Of a stretch of 64,000 bases of DNA, positions 55,335 through 63,745 are shown one piece after another. Below the pieces are notes generated by a model. The model made no database searches, was not told where the DNA came from, and saw only the letters and a program-made list of their open reading frames with translations. The first letter of the stretch is position 1; every line of letters starts with the position of its first letter. The stretch is from Akkermansia sp. (GTDB lineage Bacteria > Verrucomicrobiota > Verrucomicrobiia > Verrucomicrobiales > Akkermansiaceae), in the NCBI GenBank assembly GCA_017517385.1, contig JAFWZG010000052.1:1-64000 (forward strand). The letters are read 5' to 3'. Made by a program: the position numbers and the translations under genes.

Positions 55335-55408
55335 TTAGTATTTTTGTGCGTTCTCATGGTCAGAGGCCCCCATATGAGGGGCTGCAACAACTAAAAGAAA
55401 GCACAATT

Positions 55409-55705
55409 ATGAAAAAACAATTCGTTAAGATGGCCGCTGTAGCGGTGATGGTACTGGGAATGGCAAGCGCACAGTCTAGCGCCGCTGAAGTATCGCTGAA
55501 AGTAAATCTGTCCAATGGTGTGGTCAGTCTCTCCAGCAGCGATAATTGCTGCCATCATCAGGTAGATAATCACAGAAGGGTAGATGTAAACCGCCGTGAG
55601 GCTCAGCGCCGTGAAGAGATGCGCCGCCGCGAAGAAATGAGACGCCGAGAACAGCAGCGCCACCATGCCGCAGCACGCCGCGCTAATCATCATGGCCGCC
55701 GTTAA
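55409..55705 (+). CDS. Small secreted Arg/His-rich protein, first of a tandem pair
   Basis: 98 residues from the ATG at 55409 (an upstream in-frame start would spoil the signal peptide). The signal peptide MKKQFVKMAAVAVMVLGMAS...SSAAE gives a mature protein of about 73 residues. It has a short beta-like part (VSLKVNLSNGVVSLSS), the motif NCCHHQVDNHRRVDVNRR, and then a strongly basic helix (RREEMRRREEMRRREQQRHH). The Cys-Cys-His-His group could bind metal, and the basic helix could bind nucleic acid or acidic polymers. Both ideas are inference. The following gene is a clear duplicate, including its leader (AAAAGAAAGCACAATTATG). Confidence 0.7.
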   Translation: MKKQFVKMAAVAVMVLGMASAQSSAAEVSLKVNLSNGVVSLSSSDNCCHHQVDNHRRVDVNRREAQRREEMRRREEMRRREQQRHHAAARRANHHGRR

Positions 55706-55738: not shown

Positions 55739-56035
55739 ATGAAAAAGCAATTCGTTAAGTTCGCAGCCGTAGCGTTGATGGCATTGGGGGTAGTAAGTGC
55801 ACAGGCAAGTGCTGCTGAGGTAGCAGTGAGAGTAAATCTGGCAAATGGTCAGGTAAGAGTTTCTCGAGATGCTCGTTGCTGTCACCACAAGGTAGATAAT
55901 CACCGAAGAGTGAACGCTCACCGCCTTGAAGCCCTGCGTCGTGCAGAAATGCGCCGCCGAGAGGAAATGCGCCGCCGAGAGCAGCAACGCCGTCACTCCG
56001 CAGCTCACTGTGATAATCATCGTGGACGCCGTTAA
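55739..56035 (+). CDS. Small secreted Arg/His-rich protein, second of a tandem pair
   Basis: 98 residues, the same length as the previous gene. It has the same layout: signal peptide MKKQFVKFAAVALMALG...ASAAE, beta-like segment VAVRVNLANGQVRVS, motif RCCHHKVDNHRRVNAHRLE, and a basic helix (RRAEMRRREEMRRREQQR). The leader AAAAGAAAACACAATCATG copies that of the first gene. The pair ends at a strong terminator. No known family is recognised. Conservation of CCHH-VDNHRRV between the copies suggests that the motif matters most. Confidence 0.7.
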   Translation: MKKQFVKFAAVALMALGVVSAQASAAEVAVRVNLANGQVRVSRDARCCHHKVDNHRRVNAHRLEALRRAEMRRREEMRRREQQRRHSAAHCDNHRGRR

Positions 56036-56637: not shown

Positions 56638-57765
56638 TTAGTGTTTTTCTACGAGGAAGAGGTATTCTTTCAATTTAATATCTCTGTTTCTGAGATTTCG
56701 GCAGCCCCGGAAGGTATTGTAATCCGTTTCCAGTGCGCTTACTTTGCCGATGGAGTTCAGGTGCTCCATAAAGTCATCATATTTAACGAAGCCCTCAGAG
56801 TTGTATGAGATGAGAATGAAGCGCGCCGGGCATTCATTAATGAGGTGGAAGAGCTCATCACGCGCAGACTGTGGTTTGTTGTATGCGGAGCGTTTCCAAC
56901 CGCGAGGAATTCCGGATTCCGGGGAGTATGATTCCGGTTTCTCGTAATTGGCTACCAAGTTCAGCATGAAGTAATTTGACCCGTACGGGTGCTGATTATA
57001 GGGGGGATCCAGGTAGGCTAAATCCACCTCAGGCATATTCTGCACTGCATGAATAGCTCTGCCATGGAGAATATGATTGGTGGTGTGATGCTTGGAGAAA
57101 ACCGGTAGCGTTAGTTCGATATTACCCAGTATGCGGGAAAGTGCATTTCTTCCTTCACCTCCAAACTGGCCTCGACCTTCACTGTTTTTATAAAATCCTT
57201 TGAAAACGCCGGCCGTGTTGGTATGTACTGATGCACCGTAGAGCAAGGGGGCCATGAAGAAGGGGAATAGGCGCTCTGGCAATCTGTGAATAGCGCGGCT
57301 GGCCGTATCCAGATACATGGCGTTTCTCCGCGTGTAAAAGGCGCGCTCGCCGGGGCGTATATCCTCATCATTAGCCGGGGCGTACATCTCCGTAATGAAA
57401 CCGGGTGTCAGGTGGAGGAGTTCGCCCTGCAGGGCTCCGAGTTGTTCTGCGAGTTCTTCGTGGTTCAGCTCATCTGCATTGGCCAAATAGCAGCGGTTAA
57501 TGATGTGGGCGTAATCTTCCAAATCATTTACGTACAAATCAGTAGCATGTTGTTTCAACAACCTTGCCACGATGCCGGAGCCGGAGAAGGCATCCAAGCA
57601 ACTGAGTTTTCTGCCCCCCAGCCGCTCGCGTACTTGCATGATGCCCTTACTGATGAATCCCAGCAGTGAACGCTTGTTACCGATATAGGTGATTATCTGC
57701 TCCGCCAAGTAGGCGGGATTTTCTTCACATTCCGGTGGCTGGGGCATGGTGTCAGGGCTGGTCAA
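56638..57765 (-). CDS. D12-class adenine-specific DNA methyltransferase
   Basis: 375 residues. An N6-adenine DNA methyltransferase of the D12 (Dam/type II) class. The SAM-binding motif I is [11 protein letters not shown] (F60-SGSG) and the catalytic motif is DPPY (253-256, in [12 protein letters not shown]). The N-terminal [12 protein letters not shown] matches motif X of this class. No restriction endonuclease gene is adjacent, so it looks like an orphan methylase. Its start overlaps the thyA stop by four bases (ATGA), tying it to nucleotide synthesis genes. The recognition sequence cannot be read from the protein. Confidence 0.9.
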
Positions 57766-59494: not shown

Positions 59495-60442
59495 TTAGGC
59501 TGTGAGGATTTCCGGCTCCTCGGCTTCTTCATCCTCGGGGCCTTCCATGCTTTCTTCCTCTAGTTTCAGCATTTGTATAATAGCCTCAGGGTCTCTGAAG
59601 TCCTGTTCCAGCTGACGGCGTGCAGCTGGTTTGTCTGCCTCTTCGTAGCAGTAATCAATAATGAGGGCAAAAATGGCCTTTACCTTCATGACGTCATCCA
59701 CGGTGTTGATGCCTGCTGCCTGAAGGCGCCCAAGCTCTTCCGTCAGGAGCTCTGACATACGAGAACGCAGCCAGAGTTTTACATTTCGGGAGCTGCGGGG
59801 CAGCTGGGCTTTCAGGTGGTTCAACTTATCCGTCAGGTTCGGGATATACTCGAGCTCTGCGTCCAGCTCTTCCATGCGTTCCACATCTTCATCTGAAACT
59901 TCCTCCATGTTGGAGGCGGCTGCTTCAGCGCTGGCTCGTTCGGCACGGTCCTGTCTGATTTGTTCGAGCAGGAAATCCGGATCCTCAAATTGAGCCTCTA
60001 TTGCTCTCATAGCCTCTTCCCTGAGTGCCTCATCAGGGTTCATGGATACCAGTTCTACCAGAAGTTCTCGAGCTTTATTGATATCAGCATGTGAATCAGC
60101 AGTCTTGAAAACCTCTTCCAGCATGTCTTCCAGAAGCTGAGCCTTGAGCGCTTGCACAATCAGTACCGTTTCCTTGCAGTACTCACCCTCTAGTGCTGCA
60201 TTCAATGCGCGCAGCTGCAGTTCGCGATTTTCTCCGGCCTTGTTCAGTTCTTGCTCAATGCTTTGCCATTCTTGCAGGGCCTGAGGTGAAAAGCCGACGA
60301 ACCCGTCCTGAAGCGGGGCTACTACTTCAGGTGCAGCTTCGGTTGATTCGTCCAAAAGCGTGATGGCTTCTTCTTGCGCAGTTCCTGTCAGAACAGGTGC
60401 ACTCAGAAGAATTGCTGCAAAAGTATGCTTCAGAAGCATCAT
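59495..60442 (-). CDS. Secreted helical protein sharing the C-terminal module of its thioredoxin-fold neighbours
   Basis: 315 residues. A signal peptide (to about 22, VLTGTAQ) is followed by an acidic, helical chain with no thioredoxin domain. The C-terminus has TVDDVMKVKAIFALI and, after a spacer, FRDPEAIIQMLK. This matches TVEDVLAVKELYTQI and FANPEELLKQIK at the end of the 60458 gene, and TVEDVLKARDYVL and FENPEALLQKVQ at the end of the 62798 gene. A second copy of the module end occurs inside this protein (FEDPDFLLEQIRQD). It is 15 bases after the thioredoxin-like gene, so it is in the same operon. Its function is unknown, possibly a partner or adaptor. Confidence 0.65.
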   Translation of the reverse strand: MMLLKHTFAAILLSAPVLTGTAQEEAITLLDESTEAAPEVVAPLQDGFVGFSPQALQEWQSIEQELNKAGENRELQLRALNAALEGEYCKETVLIVQALKAQLLEDMLEEVFKTADSHADINKARELLVELVSMNPDEALREEAMRAIEAQFEDPDFLLEQIRQDRAERASAEAAASNMEEVSDEDVERMEELDAELEYIPNLTDKLNHLKAQLPRSSRNVKLWLRSRMSELLTEELGRLQAAGINTVDDVMKVKAIFALIIDYCYEEADKPAARRQLEQDFRDPEAIIQMLKLEEESMEGPEDEEAEEPEILTA

Positions 60443-60457
60443 CGGGAGGGGGAGGAT

Positions 60458-61399
60458 TTAGCGGTTTTGGCTCTTAATCTGCTTGAGCAGCTCTTCAGGG
60501 TTGGCGAAGAGTTGATTAATGCGGGTAGCAGTTGCTTCTCGCTCTTCTGTGGGCAGAGTCTCGAGAATCTGGGTGTAAAGTTCCTTCACGGCAAGAACAT
60601 CTTCTACAGTTTCGGCGGTGGAGAAGGCCGCATTAATTTTGCTGAGAAGGATTTGCTGTTTCAAGCCATTGAGCATCTGCAGGTTTGATCCGCTCACTTG
60701 GGCAATTGCTGCATTGGTGAGTTCTAGAGCGCGGTCTGCATTACGCCCACAGGCACGGAGATCCTGTTCGAGCTTATTCATTATCTCAGTTTCGCGCATC
60801 AAGTTTTGAATTCCGGTAGCGTTTTCAGTGTCCAGTTCTGCAACCTGACTCAGAAGGCCAGCAGCGCTTTCCTTGATATCATCCGGCATGTTTTCATAAA
60901 CAGCCATCAGAGCCTTGGCTCGTTCTACGCCAGTCAGGGTATTAGCGGCTTCCAGACGCTGTGCGTTCTCTAGGGATTTGTCAAGCTGCTGAGCGGTGTC
61001 TTGTACGGAGGCGGGGCATCCTACGAAACCACCTACCACTGTGCCATTTGCCGTCATGACAAGAACGGTCGGGAAGCCGCTCACCTTAAATTCTTCACAC
61101 AGAGATTGATTTCTTACCAGGTTTTCATGACCGCCCACTCGGCTGCTATCGCGAGGGACATCAATTTCAACCAGTACAAATTTGTCCGCAGCGTAAGTAT
61201 CAAACTCAGGCTTGTTAAAAACATTATTTCTGAGACGTATGCAGTATGTGCACCAGTCAGAGCCGGTAAAGTCCACCAGCACGGCCTTGTTCTCGGCTGC
61301 AGCTCTCGTTCGTGCTGCATCCAGATCCGTCATCCATTCTGCAGCGAATGCCGGCGCCACAATGGCAGCCAGCCCGGCAATTAACAAGTTCTTGAACAT
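60458..61399 (-). CDS. Secreted thioredoxin-fold protein with C-terminal helical module (I)
   Basis: 313 residues. The signal peptide (to about 19, APAFA) is followed by a thioredoxin_7-like domain (about 21-140): EWMTDLDAARTRAAAENK, strand AVLVDFTGSDW, redox pair C50-TY-C53, and cis-Pro strand GFPTVLVM. An extra Cys lies in RNQSLCEEF. The remaining 170 residues are helical and end in the module TVEDVLAVKELY...FANPEELLKQIK. It is likely a periplasmic thiol oxidoreductase; its substrate is unknown. It heads a two-gene operon with the helical protein at 59495 and is a paralogue of the gene at 62798. Confidence 0.82.
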   Translation of the reverse strand: MFKNLLIAGLAAIVAPAFAAEWMTDLDAARTRAAAENKAVLVDFTGSDWCTYCIRLRNNVFNKPEFDTYAADKFVLVEIDVPRDSSRVGGHENLVRNQSLCEEFKVSGFPTVLVMTANGTVVGGFVGCPASVQDTAQQLDKSLENAQRLEAANTLTGVERAKALMAVYENMPDDIKESAAGLLSQVAELDTENATGIQNLMRETEIMNKLEQDLRACGRNADRALELTNAAIAQVSGSNLQMLNGLKQQILLSKINAAFSTAETVEDVLAVKELYTQILETLPTEEREATATRINQLFANPEELLKQIKSQNR

Positions 61400-61405
61400 G
61401 GCTAG

Positions 61406-61434
61406 ATTATGAATACTTTATGGCGGAATGGCAA
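61406..61434 (-). promoter_or_regulatory. Promoter of the thioredoxin-like gene at 60458-61399
   Basis: Minus strand TTGCCA (61434-61429), 17-base spacer, CATAAT (61411-61406), 6 bases before the ATG. A leaderless mRNA is predicted. Confidence 0.55.
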
Positions 61435-61603
61435 GTCTAATTTGCGGCATAATGATATAGAACGCGCTGAGGGCACCTTATCAGGCGAACCGTTATAGGC
61501 CGGTACGGGAGGTATGATATCAGTGTTTGCTGCAGGGGGGGCCATGATAGTTTGCAGATGCTCTATGATTTCTTTTAATTTGAAGCTTGGGTGAAAATTA
61601 TGC

Positions 61604-61632
61604 TTGTCACCGGGCATTCTGCTTGCTAAACT
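61604..61632 (+). promoter_or_regulatory. Promoter of the ankyrin lipoprotein gene
   Basis: TTGTCA (61604-61609), 17-base spacer, TAAACT (61627-61632), 13 bases before ATG 61646 and 19 before ATG 61652. Confidence 0.5.
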
Positions 61633-61651
61633 GGCCACATACCAGATGCTC

Positions 61652-62725
61652 ATGAACTCTTCCAAAAGTATTTCGCCTTCAAAAATCAGCCTGTGTCTCA
61701 GTCGGCTGAATATGTGCTGTCTGGGGGCGGCCCTGGCTGTGGTAGCCTTTTCTGTTTGCTCGTGCCAGGCGAGGCAGGCTCGCTTTGCGGCGATAGGTGA
61801 GCTTATGAAAGACGGGGTGATTCAAACTCCCTCTGAGCTTTATACCAGAGTGTTGCCGAATGGTTCTACTCTGTTGGTCTCTGCTGCTGAAAAGGGTGAT
61901 GAAGCCTTGGTGAGGCGCTTGCTCGTAGCGGGGGTGGATCCAGACGGGCGGGCGTATAAGGGCAACTCTGTTCCGCTTACCCGCACACAGTCAGCTGCAG
62001 TGGTGCGTACTTTGCTTCAGTACGGGGCGGATGAGAATGCTGTGGACTCCGCCGGTATGACTCCTTTGGGCTGGATGGCGTCTCTTGATAACATGGAGGG
62101 TGTGCGAGCTTTGCTGGCAGCCGGGGCTAAGGTGAATCCCGGCCGTCGAGCCATGCCGCCTCTGCTGAGTGCAGGCTCGCTCGGGGTGGCGGCCCAGCTG
62201 ATAGCTGCCGGAGCTGATATTGATGGGGTATCTCCATCCGGCATGACTCCGCTGATGAAAGCATCATCTCGCGGGGAGGTGACTTTGGCCGAGCTGTATC
62301 TGGGAGCCGGTGCTCAGGTAAATGCGGTGGATGGTGCTGGTAATACGGCATTGCATGTGGCGCGTTCTGTTCCGATGGTGGAGCTTCTTGCTAGGAATGG
62401 TGCGGATGTGCGTGCGCTGAATGCGCGCGGCGAGTCCCCTCTGTTTGAAATTATGCACAGCGCTGAAATGGTGCGTGCTTTGGTGGCAGCGGGTGTACCC
62501 ATGGATGTGGTTTCTGCTGAGCGGAAAATGACGGCCTTGCAGGTGATGCTTGCTGATGACCGCGAGTCTGATGATGCTATACTGGCGCTCATTGCGGCCG
62601 GGGCTGATGTGCGAGGGCGTACTCCGGAAGGGGATACCACGGTGCAGCAGGCCAGTGCCCGCAGTACTGGCCGCCGATGGGCTATTATTCATGCTCTCAT
62701 GCGGGCCGGAGCTCAGGCTGAGTAA
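61652..62725 (+). CDS. Ankyrin-repeat lipoprotein or secreted protein
   Basis: 357 residues from ATG 61652 (61646 adds two residues). A hydrophobic signal (MCCLGAALAVVAFSVCSC) ends in Cys residues that could be a lipobox (FSVC), so it is probably membrane-tethered outside the cytoplasm. Nearly the whole chain is ankyrin repeats: GSTLLVSAAEKGDEALVRRL, GMTPLGWMASLDNMEGVRAL, GMTPLMKASSRGEVTLAELY, GNTALHVARSVPMVELLARN, GESPLFEIMHSAEMVRALVA and more, about eight in all. It lies between two paralogous thioredoxin-like genes, on the opposite strand. No enzyme motif is visible. Confidence 0.82.
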   Translation: MNSSKSISPSKISLCLSRLNMCCLGAALAVVAFSVCSCQARQARFAAIGELMKDGVIQTPSELYTRVLPNGSTLLVSAAEKGDEALVRRLLVAGVDPDGRAYKGNSVPLTRTQSAAVVRTLLQYGADENAVDSAGMTPLGWMASLDNMEGVRALLAAGAKVNPGRRAMPPLLSAGSLGVAAQLIAAGADIDGVSPSGMTPLMKASSRGEVTLAELYLGAGAQVNAVDGAGNTALHVARSVPMVELLARNGADVRALNARGESPLFEIMHSAEMVRALVAAGVPMDVVSAERKMTALQVMLADDRESDDAILALIAAGADVRGRTPEGDTTVQQASARSTGRRWAIIHALMRAGAQAE

Positions 62726-62743
62726 GCTTGCTTGCAGTCTTTG

Positions 62744-62775
62744 TAAAAAATAAGGCGAGTCAAATGACCCGCCTT
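62744..62775 (-). terminator. Terminator of the thioredoxin-like gene at 62798
   Basis: Arms AAGGCGGGTCA and TGACTCGCCTT (one mismatch) followed on the minus strand by ATTTTTT. The converging ankyrin lipoprotein gene may share it. Confidence 0.75.
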
Positions 62776-62797
62776 GTAATATTTCGGGGCTTGCCAA

Positions 62798-63745
62798 TTA
62801 GCGGCGCGCGCGCATCTGCTGAACTTTTTGCAGCAGTGCTTCCGGATTTTCAAAAGTTTTACGCAGTTCTGCTATCATCTGCTCTCTGATATCCTCCGGA
62901 TAGCTGATTTCTGCTTCACCAAGAACATAATCACGGGCCTTGAGTACGTCCTCTACTGTTTGGGCGTGGTACAGCATAGCGTTCAAGCAAGGGAAAATCA
63001 CGACGGAGCGCTTGCGCTCCATAATTAGCTCTCGGTTTAAGGGATGAGCCTCCGCCAGATAACGGTTGAATATTTCCGTCTGAATCTGGAAGTTGCGGTG
63101 GTGGGCACGTACCTCATTCATGAGACTTTGCATCTGAGCATTGGCGGCCACTAGGCTTCTCAGGCCGAGCGTATCTTCGGGGTCTGTCTCCTCAATTTCC
63201 TTGCGGATTGTTTCCAACGTGGATTGATAATTAGAGGGGAAATCCTTGTAAATCTCAAAGAGTGCGCGAGCTTTATCCAGCCCGCTGAGAGCTCTAGCAG
63301 CAGCAAGCCGGCGGCCGCGTTCGATGGCCTCATCCAGTATCACCGTGGTGGATTCCACATTCGGGCGAGCTCCGGAGAAGCCTCCCAGTACCTCACCATC
63401 AGCATTCAGCACCAGCAGTGTGGGGAAGCCGCGTACGCCATAGCGGTTGCACAGTTCTTGACGAGCTGCTCTTACTTCATCCGGAATGGCACGGCGGGGG
63501 ATATCTACCTCCACCAGCACAAGCTTGTCAGCTGCGTAGCTTTCAAACTCGGGCTTAGCAAGTACGTCTCTCTTCAGGCGGATGCAGTAACCGCACCAGT
63601 CAGAGCCGGTAAAGTTTACCAGAATGGCTTTTCCCTGCTGCGCGGCTTGTTCGCGCGCTGCGTTCAAATCAGTCATCCATTCTGCTGCCATAGCCGGAGC
63701 TATGATAGCTGCCAGCCCCATAGGTACGATTACACTTCGAAACAT
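62798..63745 (-). CDS. Secreted thioredoxin-fold protein with C-terminal helical module (II)
   Basis: 315 residues from the ATG at 63745, which lies 6 bases after the -10 box (an upstream GTG would overlap it). The signal peptide (to about 20, APAMA) precedes a thioredoxin_7-like domain: EWMTDLNAAREQAAQQGK, ILVNFTGSDW, redox pair C51-GY-C54, and RGFPTLLVLNADG with cis-Pro. The helical C-terminus includes GLRSLVAANAQMQSLMNEV and the module TVEDVLKARDYVL...FENPEALLQKVQ. It is a close paralogue of 60458-61399 in the same order. It is likely a periplasmic thiol protein with unknown clients. Confidence 0.82.
   Translation of the reverse strand: MFRSVIVPMGLAAIIAPAMAAEWMTDLNAAREQAAQQGKAILVNFTGSDWCGYCIRLKRDVLAKPEFESYAADKLVLVEVDIPRRAIPDEVRAARQELCNRYGVRGFPTLLVLNADGEVLGGFSGARPNVESTTVILDEAIERGRRLAAARALSGLDKARALFEIYKDFPSNYQSTLETIRKEIEETDPEDTLGLRSLVAANAQMQSLMNEVRAHHRNFQIQTEIFNRYLAEAHPLNRELIMERKRSVVIFPCLNAMLYHAQTVEDVLKARDYVLGEAEISYPEDIREQMIAELRKTFENPEALLQKVQQMRARR

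What the first reader, a model, noticed from the sequence alone, without database searches (positions are those of the whole stretch)
59495..63745. Cluster of secreted proteins sharing a new C-terminal helical module, two with active thioredoxin folds and one without
The genes at 60458 and 62798 are paralogues, each with a signal peptide, a thioredoxin_7-like domain (WCTYC, WCGYC) and a long helical tail. The gene at 59495 has no thioredoxin domain, but its end carries the same module (TV[ED]DV..., then F-xPE-hhxQhh), and it has a second internal copy of the module's end. A protein carrying only the module beside two redox proteins carrying it suggests a dedicated periplasmic system, for example thiol enzymes plus an adaptor. 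I know of no described pathway with this composition.
Basis: partly seen in the sequence, partly recalled or inferred. Interest (0 to 1): 0.72.

Follow-up and report, generated by a model that had tools for sequence, protein, structure and literature searches.

The report
Thioredoxin with a thioredoxin-less partner protein
In part of the gut-bacterium genus Akkermansia, a secreted thioredoxin-type enzyme is always encoded right next to a secreted protein made only of two copies of the enzyme's own helical tail, which suggests a two-part thiol-disulfide machine not described before, although no one has tested it.

Summary
P0002 (60458-61399) and P0003 (62798-63745) are 40%-identical paralogues: signal peptide, Thioredoxin_7/DsbH-like domain, helical tail. 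P0001 (59495-60442) lacks the Trx domain and carries two complete copies, not one and a half, of the ~104-residue, six-helix tail module. A profile built without the window sequences finds both copies and both Trx tails (E down to 6e-15), with no hit in 2982 shuffled or reversed controls. No Pfam, PDB-sequence or Foldseek match identifies the module; it occurs in 44 of 76 Akkermansia species and in no other genus sampled in the order.

The pair P0002-P0001 is the unit. In all 8 species that have P0001 it lies 2-16 bp downstream of the P0002 orthologue, in about four genomic contexts, under purifying selection. Species without it include 5-6 with a second module fused to the same kind of Trx protein. 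P0003 is a separate transcription unit, adjacent in only 3 of 8 species. The genome has DsbD but no detectable DsbA, DsbB or VKOR, so a reductive role is favoured.

Best reading: P0001 is a non-catalytic partner or scaffold of P0002, a DsbD-fed periplasmic thiol reductase. Physical binding and substrate are untested.

The parts
59495..60442 (-). P0001: secreted module-only protein (signal peptide, two copies of the six-helix module, acidic tail), no thioredoxin domain
59945..60259 (-). module copy 1 of P0001 (residues 62-166)
   Evidence: E=2e-25
59564..59866 (-). module copy 2 of P0001 (about residues 192-293)
   Evidence: E=6e-26
59498..59563 (-). acidic, predicted disordered C-terminal tail of P0001 (net charge -11 over 22 residues; acidic tail in all 8 orthologues)
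60443..60457 (-). 15-bp gap between the P0002 stop and the P0001 start; no terminator-like site
60458..61399 (-). P0002: signal peptide, Thioredoxin_7/DsbH-like domain, three-helix linker, one module
61001..61342 (-). thioredoxin domain of P0002 (CTYC at 61241-61252)
   Evidence: best PDB match 2ju5 DsbH, E=7e-7
60467..60772 (-). module of P0002
   Evidence: E=2e-30
62798..63745 (-). P0003: paralogue of P0002 with CGYC; related, but a separate unit
62810..63124 (-). module of P0003
   Evidence: E=3e-31
62752..62775 (-). terminator-like hairpin after P0003 (consensus match only), separating it from the P0002-P0001 pair

Best explanation
P0002 and P0001 are one operon for a two-subunit periplasmic thiol-disulfide device. 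P0002 is a DsbH/DsbD-gamma-like thioredoxin that most likely works as a reductase fed by the membrane protein DsbD. P0001 is its non-catalytic partner: two tandem copies of the same six-helix module, no conserved cysteine and an acidic tail. It acts as a scaffold or client-binding subunit, probably through module contacts. Shown: homology, two copies, strict gene pairing, purifying selection, presence of DsbD. Inferred: export, co-transcription, physical association, direction of electron flow. Unknown: the client.
For: Pairing: the module-only gene lies 2-16 bp downstream of the P0002 orthologue in 8 of 8 species, while the flanking genes differ (pyrF-thyA; uspA-like/tcdA/ligA; two others). 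Age: orthologues are 35-64% identical, with synonymous sites near saturation and nonsynonymous change far lower. Architecture: 5 other species (G002, G029, G069, G070, G073), and G086 by a weaker match, carry Trx-module-module in one chain, and no genome has both forms. Their Trx domains fall in one clade with P0002-type proteins (SH-aLRT 93). A second, apparently independent module-only protein (149 aa, signal-like N-terminus) sits beside a Trx-module gene in G003. Redox: best structural match DsbH; full-length DsbD in the genome; no DsbB, DSBA or VKOR above cut-off. No invariant Cys in P0001.
Against: No interaction was predicted or measured; no complex prediction was available. A careful 53-row module tree does not resolve whether P0001's modules descend from the fused second module or from P0002's tail (AU p 0.41-0.54 for all alternatives), so the fused form is weaker evidence than a true fusion of orthologues. 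P0001 evolves faster than P0002 (mean identity 48% against 61%). Most module-bearing Trx proteins have no module-only neighbour. Absence of DsbA/DsbB/VKOR rests on Pfam models in one draft genome.
Confidence: 0.52

Rival explanations
1. P0001 is a Trx-less paralogue with its own job in the periplasm (for example a holdase or envelope-binding protein) that is merely co-expressed with P0002 and does not bind it.
For: Module-bearing proteins recombine freely in this genus (TRX-M, TRX-M-M, TRX-M-TRX-M, M-M, M), so the module may be a general binding unit. P0001 is strongly acidic (pI 4.1-4.5, net -25 to -56) and evolves faster than P0002.
Against: Strict pairing in 8 of 8 species through changes of genomic context is more than co-expression needs.
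Confidence: 0.25
2. The modules bind like with like and P0001 mainly sets the oligomeric state of the Trx proteins, including P0003 and other paralogues, as a shared hub and not as a partner of P0002 alone.
For: The genome has about six Trx paralogues, five with a recognisable module, and P0003 lies nearby.
Against: Only the P0002 type is tied to P0001; 36 species with module-bearing Trx proteins have no full-length M-M protein.
Confidence: 0.13
3. P0001 is evolutionary debris: a Trx-module-module paralogue that lost its catalytic domain and is decaying.
For: It lacks the enzyme domain and diverges faster.
Against: Intact open frames and signal-like N-termini in 8 species, nonsynonymous change well below synonymous change, and invariant residues kept.
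Confidence: 0.04
4. The similarity is generic helical-repeat (TPR-like) resemblance, not a shared module.
For: Weak Foldseek matches of P0001 are mostly TPR and other helical proteins, E 0.08 or worse; older family tails give sub-threshold TPR hits.
Against: Specific profile matches (E to 6e-15 with the window left out), zero hits in controls, the same six-helix order in both models.
Confidence: 0.04

Closest known systems
Chlamydial DsbH (PDB 2ju5; NF043050)
   Same: Secreted single Trx domain of the same subfamily, best structural match and best NCBIfam match, 1e-21 and 2e-25; PVC bacteria; suggested to keep the periplasm reducing (PMC5193440).
   Different: DsbH is a single domain with no helical tail and no module-only partner; the window proteins score 77-90 bits against a cut-off of 190.
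DsbD and its periplasmic partners (DsbC, DsbG, CcmG)
   Same: A membrane DsbD is present to feed electrons to periplasmic Trx proteins.
   Different: DsbC/DsbG carry their own dimerisation domain in the same chain; no non-catalytic partner subunit is encoded beside them (own knowledge).
Thioredoxin_7 proteins with helical tails in Verrucomicrobiales
   Same: The Trx domain and first tail part (G-ERA-AL...P...D-tG) are common across the order.
   Different: The second tail part in those proteins is a different helical tail, only remotely similar; the module is limited to part of Akkermansia.
TPR / alpha-solenoid scaffolds (MamA, KLC2 and others)
   Same: Pairs of antiparallel helices; weak Foldseek resemblance.
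   Different: No Pfam TPR hit in P0001; no match with E<0.001.

Membership tests
Thioredoxin_7 / DsbH-like periplasmic thioredoxin (P0002, P0003) | Thioredoxin_7 domain above Pfam cut-off | tested here: met
   58.6 and 63.6 bits against 27
Thioredoxin_7 / DsbH-like periplasmic thioredoxin (P0002, P0003) | CXXC active site and cis-proline loop | tested here: met
   CTYC / CGYC and GFPT; Cys pair and FPT invariant in 13 sequences
DsbH equivalog (NF043050) | score above curated cut-off of 190 bits | tested here: not met
   77.3 and 89.6 bits
DsbH equivalog (NF043050) | reducing activity in the periplasm | not testable with these tools
   only indirect: DsbD present, DsbA/DsbB/VKOR not found
TPR repeat proteins (module) | match to a TPR profile or fold | tested here: not met
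   no Pfam TPR hit in P0001 or its orthologues; Foldseek best E 0.08, none under 0.001
Redox relay protein (P0001) | conserved cysteine | tested here: not met
   no Cys among the invariant columns of 8 orthologues; Cys positions vary

The most novel reading that the evidence does not exclude
Part of Akkermansia has evolved a periplasmic thiol-reducing complex in which a Trx enzyme and a catalytically empty partner assemble through copies of a genus-specific helical module, with split (two-gene) and fused (one-gene) versions in different species: a new kind of subunit organisation for periplasmic thioredoxins.
Probability: 0.35. Interest if true: 0.7.

Novelty: new variant of a known kind. Interest (0 to 1): 0.5.

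Why it matters
Periplasmic thioredoxin-family proteins usually carry any dimerisation or client-binding domain in the same chain. A separately encoded, non-catalytic partner built from the enzyme's own tail would be a new way to organise thiol-disulfide exchange. It sits in a genus that lives on disulfide-cross-linked mucus and, in this genome, appears to have DsbD but no classical oxidative pathway. The split and fused versions give natural material to test what the module does.

Tried and rejected
Chance or low-complexity resemblance of the three ends: rejected by profiles built without the window and by shuffled or reversed controls. Known domain: none in Pfam, NCBIfam or PDB sequences, and no Foldseek match under 0.001 in PDB or viral models; the one Pfam hit under 0.001 among orthologues (MatP, 2 of 8 members, 8e-4) is on helices and looks like chance. 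Three-gene operon including P0003: rejected (terminator-like site, variable adjacency). Redox relay through P0001: rejected (no conserved Cys). Descent of P0001's modules from the fused second module: suggested by the quick tree (SH-aLRT 81-88), not upheld by the careful tree, left open. Module outside Akkermansia: none among 47 other genera of the order. Literature on this module or protein pair: none found; papers mention only COG0526 thioredoxin genes in the Akkermansia ancestor (PMC10540074).

Full report
What is there. The window lies in an Akkermansia genome (G000, 2.66 Mb, 157 contigs). Three secreted-type proteins lie on the minus strand. P0002 and P0003 have a signal-peptide-like start, a Thioredoxin_7 domain with CTYC and CGYC, and a helical tail; they are 40% identical throughout. 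P0001 has a signal-peptide-like start and no Trx domain. BLASTP places residues 62-166 of P0001 on the P0002 tail at E=7e-9, and its own end on the same tail at 6e-4. A 104-position module profile finds two complete copies in P0001, residues 62-166 and 192-293. Profiles built from the seven other orthologues alone find P0001 twice, P0002 at 6e-15 and P0003 at 1e-11, and give no hit in 2982 shuffled or reversed sequences. Profile-profile comparison: copy 1 against Trx tails 99.4% probability, copy 2 against Trx tails 99.0%, copy 1 against copy 2 97.3%.

Structure. AlphaFold2 with 8 orthologues gives P0001 as two six-helix domains at pLDDT around 90 or more, with a disordered N-terminal part and acidic tail; pTM is 0.44, so the relative placement of the two domains is not known. 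P0002 is modelled well throughout the mature part (pLDDT 90, pTM 0.74): Trx domain, three helices, then the same six-helix order. The conserved residues (T-V-E-D, P-E, F-x-D-P) sit at the starts of helices 4, 5 and 6, as helix caps. Foldseek finds DsbH (2ju5, 7e-7) and DsbD-gamma for the Trx part of P0002, and nothing under 0.001 for P0001; weak matches are TPR-like and other helical proteins. No Pfam or PDB-sequence family explains the module.

Distribution. The module is in 44 of 76 Akkermansia species and in none of the other 47 genera sampled in the order. Complete genomes of several congeners lack it (G004, G059, G060, G064). Trx domain and first tail part are widespread in the order; the older tails align with the module-bearing tails over 153 columns (99.5%), so the module probably arose from that tail. 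Observed architectures: TRX-M (91), TRX (32), M-M (8), TRX-M-M (7), double-Trx forms (3), and one single-module protein of 149 aa in G003; later loci add one more TRX-M-M candidate (G086) and further double-Trx forms.

The pair. Full-length M-M orthologues of P0001 are in 8 of 76 species. In all 8 the gene starts 2-16 bp after the P0002 orthologue, same strand. Surroundings differ: pyrF-thyA-D12 methylase-folA (window and L013), uspA-like/tcdA/ligA (L009-L012), and other contexts in L016 and L017. The pair thus stays together while neighbours change. P0003-type genes are next to it in three species only, and in the window a terminator-like site (62775-62752) and an ankyrin gene on the other strand lie between. 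Nonsynonymous change is far below synonymous change for both genes, though synonymous sites are near saturation; P0001 orthologues average 48% identity and P0002 orthologues 61%.

Fused versions. Five other species (G002, G029, G069, G070, G073) have TRX-M-M in one chain; in G002, G029, G069 and G070 it lies next to, and convergent with, a TRX-M gene. No genome has both M-M and TRX-M-M (read with 45). In a tree of the Trx domain plus linker, the P0002 type, the TRX-M neighbours of the fused genes and the fused genes form one group (SH-aLRT 93). For the modules, these groups separate from the P0003 type with 99/100 support, but their order inside is not resolved: AU tests accept every alternative tried (p 0.41-0.54). 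I therefore use the fused forms as architectural support only.

How it most likely works. The genome encodes a full DsbD (DsbD_N, membrane domain, Trx domain), and Pfam models for DsbB, DSBA and VKOR find nothing above cut-off. With DsbH as closest relative, a reductase role for P0002 is favoured; this is inference. P0001 has no invariant cysteine, so it is not a relay. It is acidic, with an acidic tail in every orthologue. I propose that P0001 binds P0002, or P0002's clients, through its two modules and so organises or directs the enzyme. Gene pairing and fused forms support a functional link; physical binding is untested.

Comparison and novelty. P0002 belongs to the Thioredoxin_7/DsbH-like group but misses the DsbH equivalog cut-off. 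DsbH is a single domain and had not been reported outside Chlamydiae as of 2016 (PMC5193440). I found no paper on the module or the pair; one comparative paper notes several COG0526 thioredoxin genes in the Akkermansia ancestor (PMC10540074). I class this as a new variant of a known kind: a periplasmic thioredoxin with a genus-limited helical module and a catalytically empty, co-encoded partner.

Noticed in passing
L096:11480-11929 (-), genome G003: A 149-aa secreted-type protein holding a single module, 29 bp upstream of a Trx-module gene; 48% identical to the end of a double-Trx protein in G001. It appears to be a second, independent module-only protein.
   Followed up: partly
G001, G003, G030, G082, G086, G088 (L098, L101, L117, L215-L217): Proteins with two Trx domains, most with modules after them, in one chain; Trx-module genes also occur in tandem clusters of two or three. 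Up to 13 relatives of P0002 in one genome (G029).
   Followed up: partly
G000 whole genome; L207:835-3168 (-): Full-length DsbD present while Pfam models for DsbB, DSBA and VKOR find nothing above cut-off: the periplasm may lack a classical oxidative pathway.
   Followed up: partly
L116:4782-6071 (+) and a few other paralogues: Trx paralogues with degenerate active sites (MQDC; one CSYS), i.e. likely catalytically dead members of the family.
   Followed up: no
window 55391-55705 (+) and 55739-56035 (+): Tandem paralogous small secreted-type proteins, very rich in Arg, Glu and His (RREEMRRREQQRHH), without a Pfam match.
   Followed up: no
window 56638-57765 (-): D12-class DNA adenine methyltransferase between folA-like and thyA genes; the same order is found in L013.
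   Followed up: no
window 61604-62725 (+): Ankyrin-repeat protein on the opposite strand between P0002 and P0003; in L013 the P0003-type and P0002-type genes lie directly side by side without it.
   Followed up: partly
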